Assembly: GCF_040712075.1 (NCBI RefSeq)
Contig: NZ_JBFCVL010000007.1
Coordinates: forward strand, 124,001-188,000
Length of the DNA: 64,000 nucleotides
Direction: 5' to 3'
DNA from: Fodinicurvata sp. EGI_FJ10296
Lineage (GTDB): Bacteria > Pseudomonadota > Alphaproteobacteria > DSM-16000 > Inquilinaceae
Shown here: in pieces, positions 20,623 through 37,878 of the stretch
Numbering within the stretch: position 1 is the stretch's first letter
How the letters are laid out: every line of letters begins with the position of its first letter
Notes under the pieces: generated by a model
The model's input: the letters and a program-made list of their open reading frames with translations, nothing else
What the model was told of the DNA's origin: nothing
Databases searched by the model: none
Translations under genes and position numbers: made by a program

Positions 20623-20960
20623 CTATGTGGCGAGGCTTGACGGCTGATTGAAGCGCCATGGCATCAGGTCTTCGATGGCAGAGGGAGATGACGGTCGAGG
20701 ATGGCGCGGAGCGTGGCGGCGATGTAGTCGACCGGGTTCACGTCGGATATCTTGCAGGTGGCTACCAGTGACGCGAGCATGGCCAGTTTTCGGCGCCGAT
20801 CTCGTTGCCCGCGAAGAGCGCAATTTTCCTTGTAAGGGCTATCGGCCGGATCTGGCTCTCGACCGGGTTGGTATCCAGTTCGAGTGCGCCGTCATCCAGG
20901 AACCGGATCAGGCCGGACCAATGCGCCAGCGTGTAGCGGATATCCCCGACCAGCGCGCGA
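20623..20960 (-). pseudogene. IS66 transposase TnpC, C-terminal remnant
   Basis: Minus-strand translation gives IRYTLAHWSGLIRFLDDGAL, then ELDTNPVESQIRPIALTRK and KIALFAGNEIGAENW, the signature C-terminal region of IS66 TnpC including the last catalytic acidic residue region. A frameshift follows; the next frame reads MLASLVATCKISDVNPVDYI, and a further shift leads to SAIEDLMPWRFNQP, the typical IS66 tail. At least two frameshifts plus loss of the N-terminal two thirds make it non-functional. Confidence 0.8.
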
Positions 20961-21240
20961 TGGCCCGTGTCAGTTGTCTTTCATCCACGCCGGCGCCAAC
21001 ACGGATCACAACGTCGCCCACGACAATTTGAAGATCGGGCTTACCGCATGCCGCGGCCTTACCCGGAACGCCGTCTTCAAGGACCAACTCGGCGAGCATC
21101 GGCGAGGACGCCACACCCGGGCATCAGGCATTACGCCGCGATCCGCGCCCGTTCTGCCTTCGTGCGCTGATGCCGTCCGCTCGGCCCCTCGATCACTTCC
21201 AGCCGGGAGACCCCAACATCCACGGAGCCGTCCAAATGGA
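20961..21240 (-). pseudogene. IS66 TnpA (OrfA) remnant
   Basis: The frame starts SRLEVIEGPSGRHQRTKAER and ARIAA, typical of IS66 OrfA N-termini, then meets a stop and a deletion. A second piece reads LVLEDGVPGKAAACGKP and LQIVVGDVVIRVGAGVDERQ, the OrfA C-terminal signature. It runs directly into TnpC sequence, so the deletion that removed TnpB joins these two remnants. Confidence 0.65.
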
Positions 21241-21511: not shown

Positions 21512-21629
21512 AAGATCGACAATCGCCCACTCACCGCTCTATGAGGGAAATTTACTATAGTTATACATCTAGAACGTGCAAATTTCTCCCAAACAACCTA
21601 TAGTACGGTTCGAAATTTGGAGGAAGCGC

Positions 21630-22607
21630 ATGGCACGGATCGAGATTCGAAGTGAGGATGACCTTTTCGGCGCGATCGAGCGGGTCCGAACTACGCAGAC
21701 TACCAAAGCACCCGACGTGGAGTTTCTCGGTTGGCCGAAATTCGAGATTACAATTCGCGGTGAGAGCTTTGATGGCGGTGTGCCGACTCGAATCATGCCC
21801 GCCCTCATGAATCTACAAAAGCAGATCAATAGAACCTACTCGATAATACAATACGGTGAAGAAAAACCATTAATCAGACACGAAAAAAGGAAGACAGAAC
21901 TTGTCGTACGTTTTGAAAATGGCTCGACAAAATTTACGGCTGATTTAACGCATGTACTCAACACTATTGTCCAGCAGGCATCTATTAAGATGGACGGAAC
22001 GCAAACGACCATCACTATTCTTGGATTAGCCGCTATTTTAGGTGGATATTTTTCTTACAAGGCTTTTCTGAATAGCAAACTAAAAGAAAAAGAGCTAGAT
22101 CAGAGTATAAGTATGTCACAACAAGAAACAGAGCGACATCGTCAAATCGTCGAACTCGCAGGCAATAATGATACGCTTCAGCAACAGATAAATAACATAC
22201 ATGAAATGCAATCTGGATTCTTGAAAAAATTAGAGGTTCACGACCAAATCGTAATGGGTGATCACCCTGTTATAGACGGTGAAACGGCTCAGAGAATCAT
22301 GCGTAAACCACGGGCAATGCCCATAGAAGACCGGATCGATGGAGAGTTCGTTATTTTGACGGTAGATTCCGGCGCTATTGAGGGAGGCTATCGCATAAAG
22401 GTACGCGAGTCAGGAGGAAATCAAGAATTGACTGTAGATGTTCCAGAGGGAACCTTAACTTCCAGCCAAATTGACGCGCTGCAAGATGGAGAATGGGGCA
22501 AGACACCCGTCGAAATGAAGATCAACGTGAAGAAGACCCGAAACCGGATCAAGGAGGCGAAGCTAATTCGGGCAGGGTTAATCGGACGCGATCAAGAAAA
22601 TGATTGA
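21630..22607 (+). CDS. Unknown single-pass membrane protein, low-GC island gene
   Basis: No family was recognised. The ATG is chosen for GGAGGAAG 3 nt before it; the product has 325 residues. Residues 1-120 look like a soluble alpha/beta domain (includes LGWPKFEITIRGESFDGG and MNLQKQINRTYSIIQYGEE). One membrane helix is at about 124-146 (ITILGLAAILGGYFSYKAF). A Gln/Glu-rich, probably coiled-coil segment follows at 150-205. The last 100 residues form a second soluble, strand-rich domain (FVILTVDSGAIEGGYRIKV). Codons are visibly AT-rich (AAA, ATA, TTA, AGA) against a GC-rich background. It is the only intact gene of the decayed island, so horizontal origin is likely. A defence or phage-related role is possible but only inferred from context. 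Confidence 0.8.
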   Translation: MARIEIRSEDDLFGAIERVRTTQTTKAPDVEFLGWPKFEITIRGESFDGGVPTRIMPALMNLQKQINRTYSIIQYGEEKPLIRHEKRKTELVVRFENGSTKFTADLTHVLNTIVQQASIKMDGTQTTITILGLAAILGGYFSYKAFLNSKLKEKELDQSISMSQQETERHRQIVELAGNNDTLQQQINNIHEMQSGFLKKLEVHDQIVMGDHPVIDGETAQRIMRKPRAMPIEDRIDGEFVILTVDSGAIEGGYRIKVRESGGNQELTVDVPEGTLTSSQIDALQDGEWGKTPVEMKINVKKTRNRIKEAKLIRAGLIGRDQEND

Positions 22608-28078: not shown

Positions 28079-28585
28079 ATTGGCCCCCTCCTGCTCTTAA
28101 AGGGCGCAACAGCCCTCATTGCTTAGTAGATTAAGATCAAACGGTTCGCCAGACAAGAAAAAATTCGATATATGCCAAATCATACTGCGTGACGTTACAA
28201 ATATAATTCTCTGTCATAGCCCTATATTTAACCCCCCGCTCCGAGTTTTGATTTAGTAACGGTCGCCATATCATGCTATTCTCCGCATAACGTTCGAAGA
28301 AAACTTCCAACGTTTTATTCGGCCATATCAACTCCGTCGATGTCTCATTTTTTCAGAGGCAACGATGTCCTTTCGAAGGCTGATATCCCGCACAGGTTGT
28401 TTAATGGAATCGATATGCCTATTTTTCTTGAATTTGTTCCGAAAAATTTTTGGATGATAATGCGAGAAGGTCGAACTTTCGCAGCAGCCGACCCCACCGG
28501 CGGTTGACGAAGGCTTGGGGCAGTCGTCATATCCACCGGGATTGTCCCATTCTGTGATGCTTTGAAAAATCGAGGAAAACCGCCC
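28079..28585. other. AT-rich intergenic region marR-aguB
   Basis: A 507-nt divergent gap, clearly more AT-rich than its surroundings. No frame longer than about 64 codons exists and none has a ribosome site or recognisable product. Near marR are a small hairpin (AGGGC-GCAACA-GCCCT) and CTTAGTAGATTAAG at 28122-28135, an imperfect palindrome 44 nt before the marR start that could be its own operator. The rest could be promoter sequence or decayed acquired DNA. Confidence 0.4.
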
Positions 28586-35140: not shown

Positions 35141-36754
35141 CTAATCCCGGACCAGCGCCCGCAGCGTTTCCAGCCGATCAGCCTCGGCCGCCGGCTTGTC
35201 CCAGCGGATGCGGTGAATACGCGGAAAGCGCATCGCCAGACCGGATTTGTGGCGGGTGGACGGATGGATGCTGTCGAACGCGACTTCGAGCACCAGCCCC
35301 GGCGGCACCTCGCGCACCGGACCATAGCGGCGCACCGTATTGGCACGGATCCATTTGTCCAGCGCGGTCAGTTCGGCATCGGTGAAACCGAAATACGCCT
35401 TGCCCACCGGGACCAGCGCGTCCTGGCCGGTCTCGGGGTCCGGGCGCCAGGCACCAAAGGTGAAATCGGAATAATAGCTCGACCGCTTGCCATGGCCGCG
35501 CTGGGCATACATCAGCACGGTATCCAGCGTCAGCGCACCGCGCTTCCACTTGAACCACGGCCCCTTGGGCCGGCCGGCGACATAGGCGCTCTCGCGGTGC
35601 TTCAGCATCAGCCCTTCGTCGCCGGTGTCGCGGGCGCTGTCGCGCAGCACCCGCAGATCGTCCCAGCCGGCGAACGCGATCAGCGGCGAAATATCCATCC
35701 GCGCCGGTGCCGTTCGTTCGATCCAGCCCTGGAGCCGCGCGCGCCGCTGGTCGAACGGCAACGCGCGCAAATCAGCGCCCTCGTCCATGAGGATGTCGTA
35801 GACGCGCACCCAGGCCGGGTGCTTCTGCAGCAGACCGGCATCGACCGTCTTGCGATTGAGACGCTGCTGGAGGGCGTTGAAGCTCTGCACCGCGCCATCG
35901 GTCATGACGAGCAATTCGCCGTCGAGCACGGCATCGAAGGTCATGGCCTCGACGATATCGGGAAAGGCGGCGCCGATCTCATCGCCCGTGCGCGAGAACA
36001 GGCGTCGCTGCCCGCCCCGTGCGGCAAGTTGGACGCGGATGCCGTCGAACTTCCATTCGGCCCGATAATCGGCCGGATCGAGACGCAGGATGTCCTCTTC
36101 TTCCAGCGGATTGGCCAGCATCATGGGCCGGAAAACGGCGCGGTCGTCGATGCTGGGCCGGTCTGCGGTTCCGTCCAGCCAGGCGAACAGGTCGATATAG
36201 GGCGGCTCCATGCCGTGCCAGACTTCCTCGATCGCCGCCAGATCGGCGTCGTGCCAGGCTTCGGTCAGCGCCGTCTTGGCCAGCCGCGCCGACACGCCGA
36301 CCCGCAGGCCGCCGGTGATCAGCTTGAGCAGGGCAAAGCGCTGCGTCGGCGCCAGCACATCCAGCCATCTCTCGACGACCGACGGCGCCGCACGGCGGCT
36401 GGTCGCGCGCAGCGTTTCCACGACTTCTGACAGGCTCAGATCGTGCGGCCCGGTCTCCGGCCCCGCCGCGTCGTCCGACGGGCCATCGGGCCAGACCAGC
36501 GACACGGTTTCCGCCAGATCGCCAACATAGTCGCAAGACCACGCGAACAGCTGCGGATGAATGCGCGCCGTCGCCAGACTGCGGATCGCACCCGCCTTGA
36601 CGCCGGTAAAGTCGAGCGTACCGGCCAGCGCCGCAAGCGCATAACCACGGTCGGGGTCCGGGGTCGAGCGGAAATAGGCCGCCATGTGGCGCAGCTTTCC
36701 ATTACGCGATGGCGTAAAGACGAGTTTCTCCATCAGGGCGGCGAAGCGCTTCAT
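35141..36754 (-). CDS. ATP-dependent DNA ligase
   Basis: Seals DNA nicks through a ligase-AMP intermediate, distinct from the NAD-dependent LigA. The 537-residue product has an N-terminal DNA-binding helical domain (1-205), a nucleotidyltransferase domain with the AMP-accepting Lys235 in EWKFDGIR, and a C-terminal OB domain with the GPWFKWKRG motif V region. It overlaps the exonuclease stop by 4 nt (ATGA), so the two are translationally coupled. This is the ligase of the ligase-associated repair set (family TIGR04120-like). Confidence 0.93.
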   Translation of the reverse strand: MKRFAALMEKLVFTPSRNGKLRHMAAYFRSTPDPDRGYALAALAGTLDFTGVKAGAIRSLATARIHPQLFAWSCDYVGDLAETVSLVWPDGPSDDAAGPETGPHDLSLSEVVETLRATSRRAAPSVVERWLDVLAPTQRFALLKLITGGLRVGVSARLAKTALTEAWHDADLAAIEEVWHGMEPPYIDLFAWLDGTADRPSIDDRAVFRPMMLANPLEEEDILRLDPADYRAEWKFDGIRVQLAARGGQRRLFSRTGDEIGAAFPDIVEAMTFDAVLDGELLVMTDGAVQSFNALQQRLNRKTVDAGLLQKHPAWVRVYDILMDEGADLRALPFDQRRARLQGWIERTAPARMDISPLIAFAGWDDLRVLRDSARDTGDEGLMLKHRESAYVAGRPKGPWFKWKRGALTLDTVLMYAQRGHGKRSSYYSDFTFGAWRPDPETGQDALVPVGKAYFGFTDAELTALDKWIRANTVRRYGPVREVPPGLVLEVAFDSIHPSTRHKSGLAMRFPRIHRIRWDKPAAEADRLETLRALVRD

Positions 36755-37878
36755 TCGCCACTCTCCTCATCATAGCCGAGCAGGTTGAGCGCCCGCCCGA
36801 CCCGCCCCTGCAGTTCGACCGCCAGAATCAGGGCCTCTTCCCGGCCATGGGTGACCCAGACCTCACTGGCTTCGACCTCGTCGATCGTGCGCAGCAACTC
36901 ATTCCAGTCGGCGTGGTCGGAAATGATCAGGGGCAGTTCGACACCGCCCTGTTTTGCCCGCTGACGAACGCGCATCCAGCCCGACGCCGCCGCCACGACC
37001 GGATCGGCAAGCCGTCGCGCCCAGCGGTCGGCAATCGCCGATGGCGGCGCCAGAACCAGTTCCCGCGCCAGATCGGCCTTTTTCATGCCGGTTGCCGGCG
37101 CCACGGCCCCCAACGGCACGCCGAACTGTTCATAAAGCGCGCACAGCGCCACCAGCGCCCCGTGCAGATAGATCGTCCGGTCATAGCCCGCACGGCGCAA
37201 AAGGGCGATGACACGCTGCGTCTTGCCCAGTCCATAGGTGCCGAGGGCATGGCTGCGTTCGGGAAACAGCGCCATGGACTCCAGCAGGCGTTTAATTTCG
37301 CCCGCCGGATCGGGATGGCGGAAGACCGGCAGACCGAATGTCGCCTCGGTCACGAACACGTCGCACGGCACCGGTTCGAACGGGGTGCAGGTCGGGTCGT
37401 CGCCGCGCTTGTAGTCGCCGGACACGACGACCCGTGCGCCCGCGTATTCCAGGACGATCTGCGCGCTGCCCAGGACGTGACCCGCCGGAACGAAGCGGAC
37501 ACTGACGCCGCCGATGGTCATGGGGTCGCCATAGACCGCCGGCTGCAGCCGCTCTCCGGCCCTTTCGGCATAGCGCACCCTCATGATGGCAAGCGTCTCC
37601 GGCGTTGCCAGCACGTTGCGGTGCCCGGGCCGGGCGTGATCGGCATGCCCGTGCGTGATCAGGGCCCGGTCGACGGCGCGCGACGGATCGATATAGAACG
37701 CACCTGGCCGACAATAGAGACCCTCCGGGCGTACCTCCATCCACGGCGCCTGTCGCGGCTGGTGAACGAGGTCGGTTGTTTCGGTGCTGTCGGTCGTCAT
37801 GTCATCTGCTGTCGTTTCATCTGCCGTCGTTACCGTGCCATGGGTATGAAAATTGGACGGCATCGGGTCGGCGTCCAT
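36751..37878 (-). CDS. Ligase-associated DNA exonuclease (metallo-beta-lactamase fold)
   Basis: MBL-fold nuclease of the SNM1/CPSF type, genetically paired with ATP-dependent ligase (TIGR04122-like). The metal motif THGHADHARPG is at residues 75-85, followed by HVLGSAQIVLEY and SGDYKRGDDPTC. A late ISDHADW motif supplies further ligands. The first 46 residues are an unusual Thr/Asp-rich tail before the conserved EVRPEGLYCRPGAFYIDP. The annotated ATG lacks a good ribosome site, so the true start may be internal. The frame overlaps the ligase by 4 nt. Confidence 0.9.
   Translation of the reverse strand: MDADPMPSNFHTHGTVTTADETTADDMTTDSTETTDLVHQPRQAPWMEVRPEGLYCRPGAFYIDPSRAVDRALITHGHADHARPGHRNVLATPETLAIMRVRYAERAGERLQPAVYGDPMTIGGVSVRFVPAGHVLGSAQIVLEYAGARVVVSGDYKRGDDPTCTPFEPVPCDVFVTEATFGLPVFRHPDPAGEIKRLLESMALFPERSHALGTYGLGKTQRVIALLRRAGYDRTIYLHGALVALCALYEQFGVPLGAVAPATGMKKADLARELVLAPPSAIADRWARRLADPVVAAASGWMRVRQRAKQGGVELPLIISDHADWNELLRTIDEVEASEVWVTHGREEALILAVELQGRVGRALNLLGYDEESGE

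What the first reader, a model, noticed from the sequence alone, without database searches (positions are those of the whole stretch)
21630..22607. Intact orphan membrane gene in a decayed low-GC island
This is the only functional gene among phage and IS relics between tRNA-Thr and argS. It is far more AT-rich than its surroundings and encodes soluble domain, one membrane helix, coiled coil and second soluble domain. No family is recognised. A gene kept intact in otherwise ruined mobile DNA is a common sign of a defence, immunity or phage-interaction role, or of very recent arrival. The two-domain membrane-spanning layout would suit a sensor or anchored effector.
Basis: partly seen in the sequence, partly recalled or inferred. 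Interest (0 to 1): 0.7.

Follow-up and report, generated by a model that had tools for sequence, protein, structure and literature searches.

The report
Stranded prophage immunity-slot membrane gene
This intact gene, stranded among transposon debris, belongs to an unstudied family of prophage genes that in some E. coli prophages exactly replaces lambda's rexA-rexB phage-exclusion genes, so it is probably a one-protein, membrane-anchored version of that kind of anti-phage function.

Summary
Window 21630-22607 (+) is an intact 325-codon gene (GC 0.45, neighbours about 0.64) next to a frameshifted IS66 relic. It is not an orphan. It matches the phage family PHROG 6191 over its whole length (E 4e-65, function unknown). 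Relatives at 16-31% identity lie in prophages, phage-plasmids and phage genomes of many Gram-negatives. It is absent from the other 16 genomes of its order.

The key result is the slot. In 9 of 27 relative clusters, and in coliphages phi458 and PhiR12, the gene directly follows the CI-type repressor. In one E. coli prophage with lambda immunity (CI 232/238 identical), a 1,075-bp cassette holding only this gene exactly replaces lambda rexA-rexB. Other clusters sit in other prophage accessory slots. Family genes are AT-richer than their surroundings in 27/27 clusters, so low GC is a family trait, not proof of recent arrival. dN/dS is about 0.02.

Predicted architecture: unmatched N-terminal domain, one membrane helix, coiled coil, C-terminal OB fold. 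Best reading: a lysogeny-expressed superinfection-exclusion or abortive-infection protein, Rex-like in role but not homologous to RexA. No activity has been tested; the role is inferred.

The parts
21630..22607 (+). Intact gene for a 325-aa membrane protein of PHROG 6191
   Evidence: phrog_6191 E 3.8e-65, residues 2-315 on profile positions 6-331 of 338
21619..21623 (+). Shine-Dalgarno-like GGAGG, 6 nt before the ATG
   Evidence: read from the sequence
21630..21995 (+). N-terminal alpha/beta domain (residues 1-122), no solved fold matched
   Evidence: models (mean pLDDT 79 alone); best VIA-align Z 3.4, Foldseek E 0.45 or worse
22011..22067 (+). Single hydrophobic membrane helix (residues 128-146)
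   Evidence: hydropathy over 22 aligned relatives
22095..22226 (+). Predicted coiled-coil helices (residues 156-199)
   Evidence: helices H156-177 and H181-199 in the model; coiled-coil assignment is inference
22314..22586 (+). C-terminal OB-fold domain (residues 229-319)
   Evidence: pLDDT about 90; VIA-align Z 9.2 to SilF, 8.1 to RecO, 7.8 to mitochondrial SSB Rim1; Foldseek best E 0.027
20688..20965 (-). Frameshifted IS66 transposase C-terminal relic (neighbour, not part of the gene)
   Evidence: PF03050 E 8.4e-15 and PF13817 E 3.2e-6 in different frames

Best explanation
The gene is a stranded prophage accessory ('moron') gene of PHROG 6191. Shown: the family is spread by temperate phages, is kept under strong purifying selection, and repeatedly occupies the slot behind the CI repressor, including an exact replacement of lambda rexAB. 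Inferred: because it is expressed from the repressor transcript in lysogens, it protects the lysogen against other phages. Inferred and least certain: the protein sits in the inner membrane through one helix and oligomerises through its coiled coil. The OB-fold and N-terminal domains recognise a sign of infection (a nucleic-acid or protein product of the invading phage). The membrane-anchored assembly then blocks or aborts that infection. In effect it would do in one polypeptide what RexA (sensor) and RexB (membrane effector) do as a pair. Whether the window copy is still expressed in its present host is unknown.
For: Full-length PHROG match. Prophage or phage-plasmid neighbours in E. coli, Moraxella, Syntrophotalea, Pasteurella and Mu-like phages. 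CI-type repressor 12-190 nt upstream on the same strand in 9 of 27 clusters, and annotated CI directly upstream in phi458 and PhiR12. Exact rexAB replacement: homology to lambda stops at 37226, next to the cI stop, and resumes at 35824, next to the rexB end. No terminator-like site between the cI stop and the gene on that strand; one lies 8 nt after the gene. The same slot behind near-identical CI holds rexAB, an NYN protein or other unrelated genes in other strains. Owen et al. 2021 note that the cI-n interval is a diversity hotspot holding bstA or rexAB, both abortive-infection genes (PMC8585504). Median dN/dS 0.02 over 47 pairs. On the tree the rex-slot label needs 8 changes, at least 5 forced by supported branches, so the slot was gained or lost repeatedly.
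Against: No phage-exclusion phenotype has been tested here, and the paper searches found no study of the family. The family also occupies slots with no repressor link: the Mu-like head operon and an antisense position between Q and the lysis genes. No match to PADLOC defence models beyond one member at E 0.0014. The window copy itself has no repressor beside it and no sigma-70-like promoter was found on its strand. OB folds also bind sugars, metals and proteins. Membrane topology is ambiguous.
Confidence: 0.55

Rival explanations
1. It is a lysogeny-control helper. Made with CI, it tunes repressor stability or the lysogeny-lysis switch, as proposed for 434 Hex and for RexAB in the lysogenic-to-lytic transition, and does not exclude other phages.
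For: Same direction and probably same transcript as cI in the rex slot. 434 Hex is expressed from the repressor transcript and prevents RecA-mediated repressor autocleavage (PMC3564112 title and abstract). Thomason et al. 2021 report that RexA and RexB assist the switch to lytic growth (title in the reference list shown).
Against: The same family sits in the Mu-like head operon and in an antisense late position, away from any CI gene. A membrane anchor is unexpected for a repressor partner.
Confidence: 0.15
2. It blocks DNA entry at the envelope, like P22 SieA or HK97 gp15. A domain on the periplasmic face binds an entry factor or the incoming genome, with no abortive response.
For: Single-pass membrane protein carried by prophages. 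The best OB-fold matches include the periplasmic proteins SilF and CusF.
Against: 16 of 22 relatives have more K/R on the C-terminal side of the helix (3 tied, 3 fewer, one of them on a doubtful segment), which by the positive-inside rule puts the OB domain in the cytoplasm. No signal peptide is apparent.
Confidence: 0.15
3. It serves host fitness or lysogenic conversion unrelated to phage: a general membrane or stress function carried by prophages.
For: Very low dN/dS and spread over several accessory slots fit any beneficial moron function.
Against: Exact allelic exchange with rexAB and recurrence in a slot whose known occupants are exclusion genes point elsewhere.
Confidence: 0.1
4. The window copy (as distinct from the family) is a stranded prophage fragment that happens to be intact and does nothing in this host.
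For: No repressor, no other phage gene, IS66 debris alongside; no relative copy in the order.
Against: A 325-codon frame with a good ribosome-binding site survives next to a frameshifted transposase; the family is under strong constraint elsewhere.
Confidence: 0.3

Closest known systems
PHROG 6191 (function unknown)
   Same: Full-length profile match, same layout, same family seen in phage context
   Different: The window copy is 16-31% identical to the relatives collected; it lies outside a recognisable prophage
Phage lambda RexA-RexB
   Same: Same genomic slot and direction behind cI in E. coli relatives; a membrane component; probable exclusion role
   Different: One protein instead of two; no detectable homology to RexA (hhalign probability 0.2%); OB fold and one membrane helix; RexB is described as an ion channel (PMC12894663)
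BstA (Salmonella prophage BTP1)
   Same: Single gene behind cI, prophage accessory (PMC8585504)
   Different: The PADLOC, Pfam and NCBIfam scans gave no match to any named defence family; BstA itself was not compared directly; here a membrane protein with an OB fold
SieA / SieB / HK97 gp15 superinfection exclusion proteins
   Same: Prophage-carried membrane proteins
   Different: No Pfam match to any such family; has a large soluble OB domain

Membership tests
PHROG 6191 | Full-length profile similarity | tested here: met
   E 3.8e-65, 221 bits, profile positions 6-331 of 338
PHROG 6191 | Carried by temperate phages or prophages | tested here: met
   For the family. The window copy itself has no phage neighbours
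RexA/RexB exclusion system | Sequence homology to RexA | tested here: not met
   Profile-profile probability 0.2%, E 0.25
RexA/RexB exclusion system | Position directly behind the CI repressor | tested here: met
   For relatives, exactly replacing rexAB in E. coli JNE132847. Not so for the window copy
RexA/RexB exclusion system | Two proteins, a sensor and a multi-helix membrane effector | tested here: not met
   The replacing cassette holds one gene with one membrane helix; the RexB helix count is from general knowledge
RexA/RexB exclusion system | Exclusion of other phages by a lysogen | not testable with these tools
   Needs plating assays
Known anti-phage defence families (PADLOC-DB 2.0.0) | Profile match | tested here: not met
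   No match for the window protein; only Mem_02 E 0.0014 and a CARF model E 0.017, each in one of 22 relatives
OB-fold proteins | Five-stranded OB barrel in the C-terminal domain | tested here: met
   In a predicted model only: residues 229-319, Z 9.2 (rmsd 2.3, 74 aligned) to SilF, many OB proteins in the list
Nucleic-acid-binding OB proteins | Binds DNA or RNA | not testable with these tools
   SSB, PriB and RecO are among the matches, but so are sugar- and metal-binding OB folds
Insertion-sequence passenger genes | Gene lies within the ends of a transposon | tested here: inconclusive
   IS66 relic beside the window gene and an IS1595-like transposase beside L003, but no convincing paired ends around either gene

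The most novel reading that the evidence does not exclude
PHROG 6191 is a new class of single-protein phage-exclusion system: a membrane-anchored OB-fold sensor-effector that takes the place of the two-gene RexAB system in lambda-immunity prophages and has spread across Gram-negative prophages, with this copy retained by a bacterium after the prophage was lost.
Probability: 0.3. Interest if true: 0.72.

Novelty: new variant of a known kind. Interest (0 to 1): 0.52.

Why it matters
The interval between cI and N is where lambda keeps rexAB and other prophages keep bstA. A precise natural swap of rexAB for one unstudied gene gives a ready comparison in the lambda system: near-identical repressor, same terminator, different gene. 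If it excludes phages, it adds a compact membrane-OB architecture to known prophage defences and names a function for a PHROG family of unknown function. It also shows that low GC in such islands can be a property of the gene family rather than a clock of arrival.

Tried and rejected
Pfam, NCBIfam, PADLOC and solved-structure sequence searches with the protein and (Pfam, PADLOC, solved structures) with the 22-row alignment gave no credible family. Relatives were sought with the window protein in viral and GTDB contigs by peptide patterns: none; they came through E. coli relatives and alignments. Alignment A1 was too diverged for pattern searches, and A2 failed for genome contigs. An att-site duplicate of tRNA-Thr was looked for and not found, so tRNA-borne integration is not shown. 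The empty site could not be defined: none of 15 argS loci of relatives shows a tRNA-Thr beside argS in the stretch held. The transposon-passenger idea was not supported. Homology to RexA was rejected. The N-terminal domain gave no fold match, which does not show that its fold is new; RexA (8twq) was not among the rows listed. The phi458 paper does not discuss the gene by the terms searched. No paper in the library mentions phrog_6191 or two of the E. coli protein accessions.

Full report
What is there. Window 21630-22607 encodes an intact 325-residue protein with a good ribosome-binding site. Its GC is 0.45 against about 0.64 around it. The flanks are tRNA-Thr on one side and argS on the other. 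The only recognisable debris is a frameshifted IS66 transposase C-terminus; parts of this stretch have 78-91% identical copies elsewhere in the genome. I found no phage relic beside it, so the phage link comes from the gene family itself.

Family. The protein is a full-length member of PHROG 6191, a phage family without known function (E 3.8e-65). tblastn found relatives in Moraxella phage Mcat17, a Vibrio plasmid, a Syntrophotalea phage-plasmid and small E. coli plasmids made of prophage pieces. Viral contigs added some 80 loci, with overlap between searches. The ORFs form 28 clusters at 85% identity, the window copy being one. In complete E. coli genomes two related types occur together in 95 genomes and a divergent type in 46 of 5,426. 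Among relatives of the window's host the gene is nearly absent: 1 of 17 genomes in the order (the window's own), 3 of 385 in the class, 4 of 398 in the phylum sample (each count includes the window's own genome). The nearest relative on the tree is L087, a viral contig with the gene behind a repressor (31% identity; the three-row group with a Mu-like relative has support 99/97).

Slots. Three accessory positions recur. (a) Behind the CI-type repressor: 9 of 27 clusters have it 12-190 nt upstream on the same strand, and phi458 and PhiR12 show it by annotation. (b) Antisense between the Q antiterminator and the lysis genes: four clusters that form one clade. (c) The head-gene operon of Mu-like phages: five clusters, L085 less clearly. 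Others lie near integrase or tail-fibre invertase genes. The rex-slot label needs 8 changes on the tree, at least 5 forced by supported branches, so the position was gained or lost more than once. Gene calls in the viral contigs are mine (longest non-overlapping ORFs), and the Mu-like and lysis-gene names there are by eye from the sequences.

The rexAB swap. The E. coli JNE132847 prophage has a CI 232/238 identical to lambda CI. Its DNA matches lambda at 95.3% from cro through cI and stops at lambda 37226, one base beyond the cI stop. It resumes at 35824, one base beyond rexB, at 92% into the leftward operators. The 1,075 bp between hold only this gene. No terminator-like site separates it from cI, and one lies 8 nt after its stop. 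In other strains the same interval behind near-identical CI holds rexAB, an NYN-domain protein or other gene pairs. Owen et al. [quoted passage not shown] This is the main ground for a lysogeny-expressed exclusion role. It is positional evidence, not a phenotype.

Selection and composition. Over 47 pairs of relatives the median dN/dS is 0.02; pairs are not independent and dS is large in some. All 27 relative clusters are AT-richer than their own locus (a notebook line says 26, the table shows 27).

Protein. The 22-row AlphaFold model has mean pLDDT 78; the C-terminal domain is near 90. That domain is an OB fold: Z 9.2 to SilF, 8.1 to RecO, about 7.4-7.8 to SSB-type and PriB proteins, with sugar-binding OB folds in the same range. 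The N-terminal domain folded alone gave no match (Z at most 3.4). One hydrophobic helix at the same place is seen in 21 of 22 rows; in L066 the scan picked an upstream segment of equal score. K/R counts favour a cytoplasmic C-terminus in 16 of 22 rows, but the N-terminal domain then has to cross the membrane without a signal peptide, so I leave topology open.

Mechanism. Shown: phage carriage, slot, co-directional arrangement with cI, constraint, OB fold in a predicted model. Inferred: expression in lysogens, oligomerisation, recognition of an infection product, and blocking or aborting infection at the membrane. RexA is described as a DNA-binding sensor and RexB as a membrane effector (PMC12894663); this protein could join both roles, but it is not a detectable RexA homologue.

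Verdict. I score interest 0.52: the window gene itself is a stranded copy whose activity is unknown, but the family is a well-placed, untested candidate, and the natural rexAB replacement makes the question directly testable.

Noticed in passing
L010 12001-12999 and 20714-21745 (E. coli JNE132847): Two divergent members of the family lie 8 kb apart: one in the rex slot, one next to a tail-fibre invertase (pinE).
   Followed up: partly
window 28080-28560: A second AT-rich stretch (GC about 0.5), between a MarR-like gene and a nitrilase-like gene (both names by eye), without a clear gene.
   Followed up: no
window 20688-20965: IS66 transposase remnant split over two frames; pieces of the surrounding stretch have 78-91% identical copies elsewhere in the genome.
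   Followed up: partly
L142 4899-5924 (phage PhiR12_2): This family member is annotated 'T2SS GspM containing protein'; Pfam scans of the 22 aligned relatives (this one not among them) listed no such match.
   Followed up: partly
L137, L139, L140 (E. coli slots behind lambda-like CI): The interval behind cI holds several other uncharacterised genes (NYN-domain, DUF1828 and others) in place of rexAB; these are further exclusion candidates.
   Followed up: no
L003 506-1387: An IS1595-like transposase gene (named from its sequence, not tested) lies convergent to a family member; whether that member is transposon cargo was not settled.
   Followed up: partly
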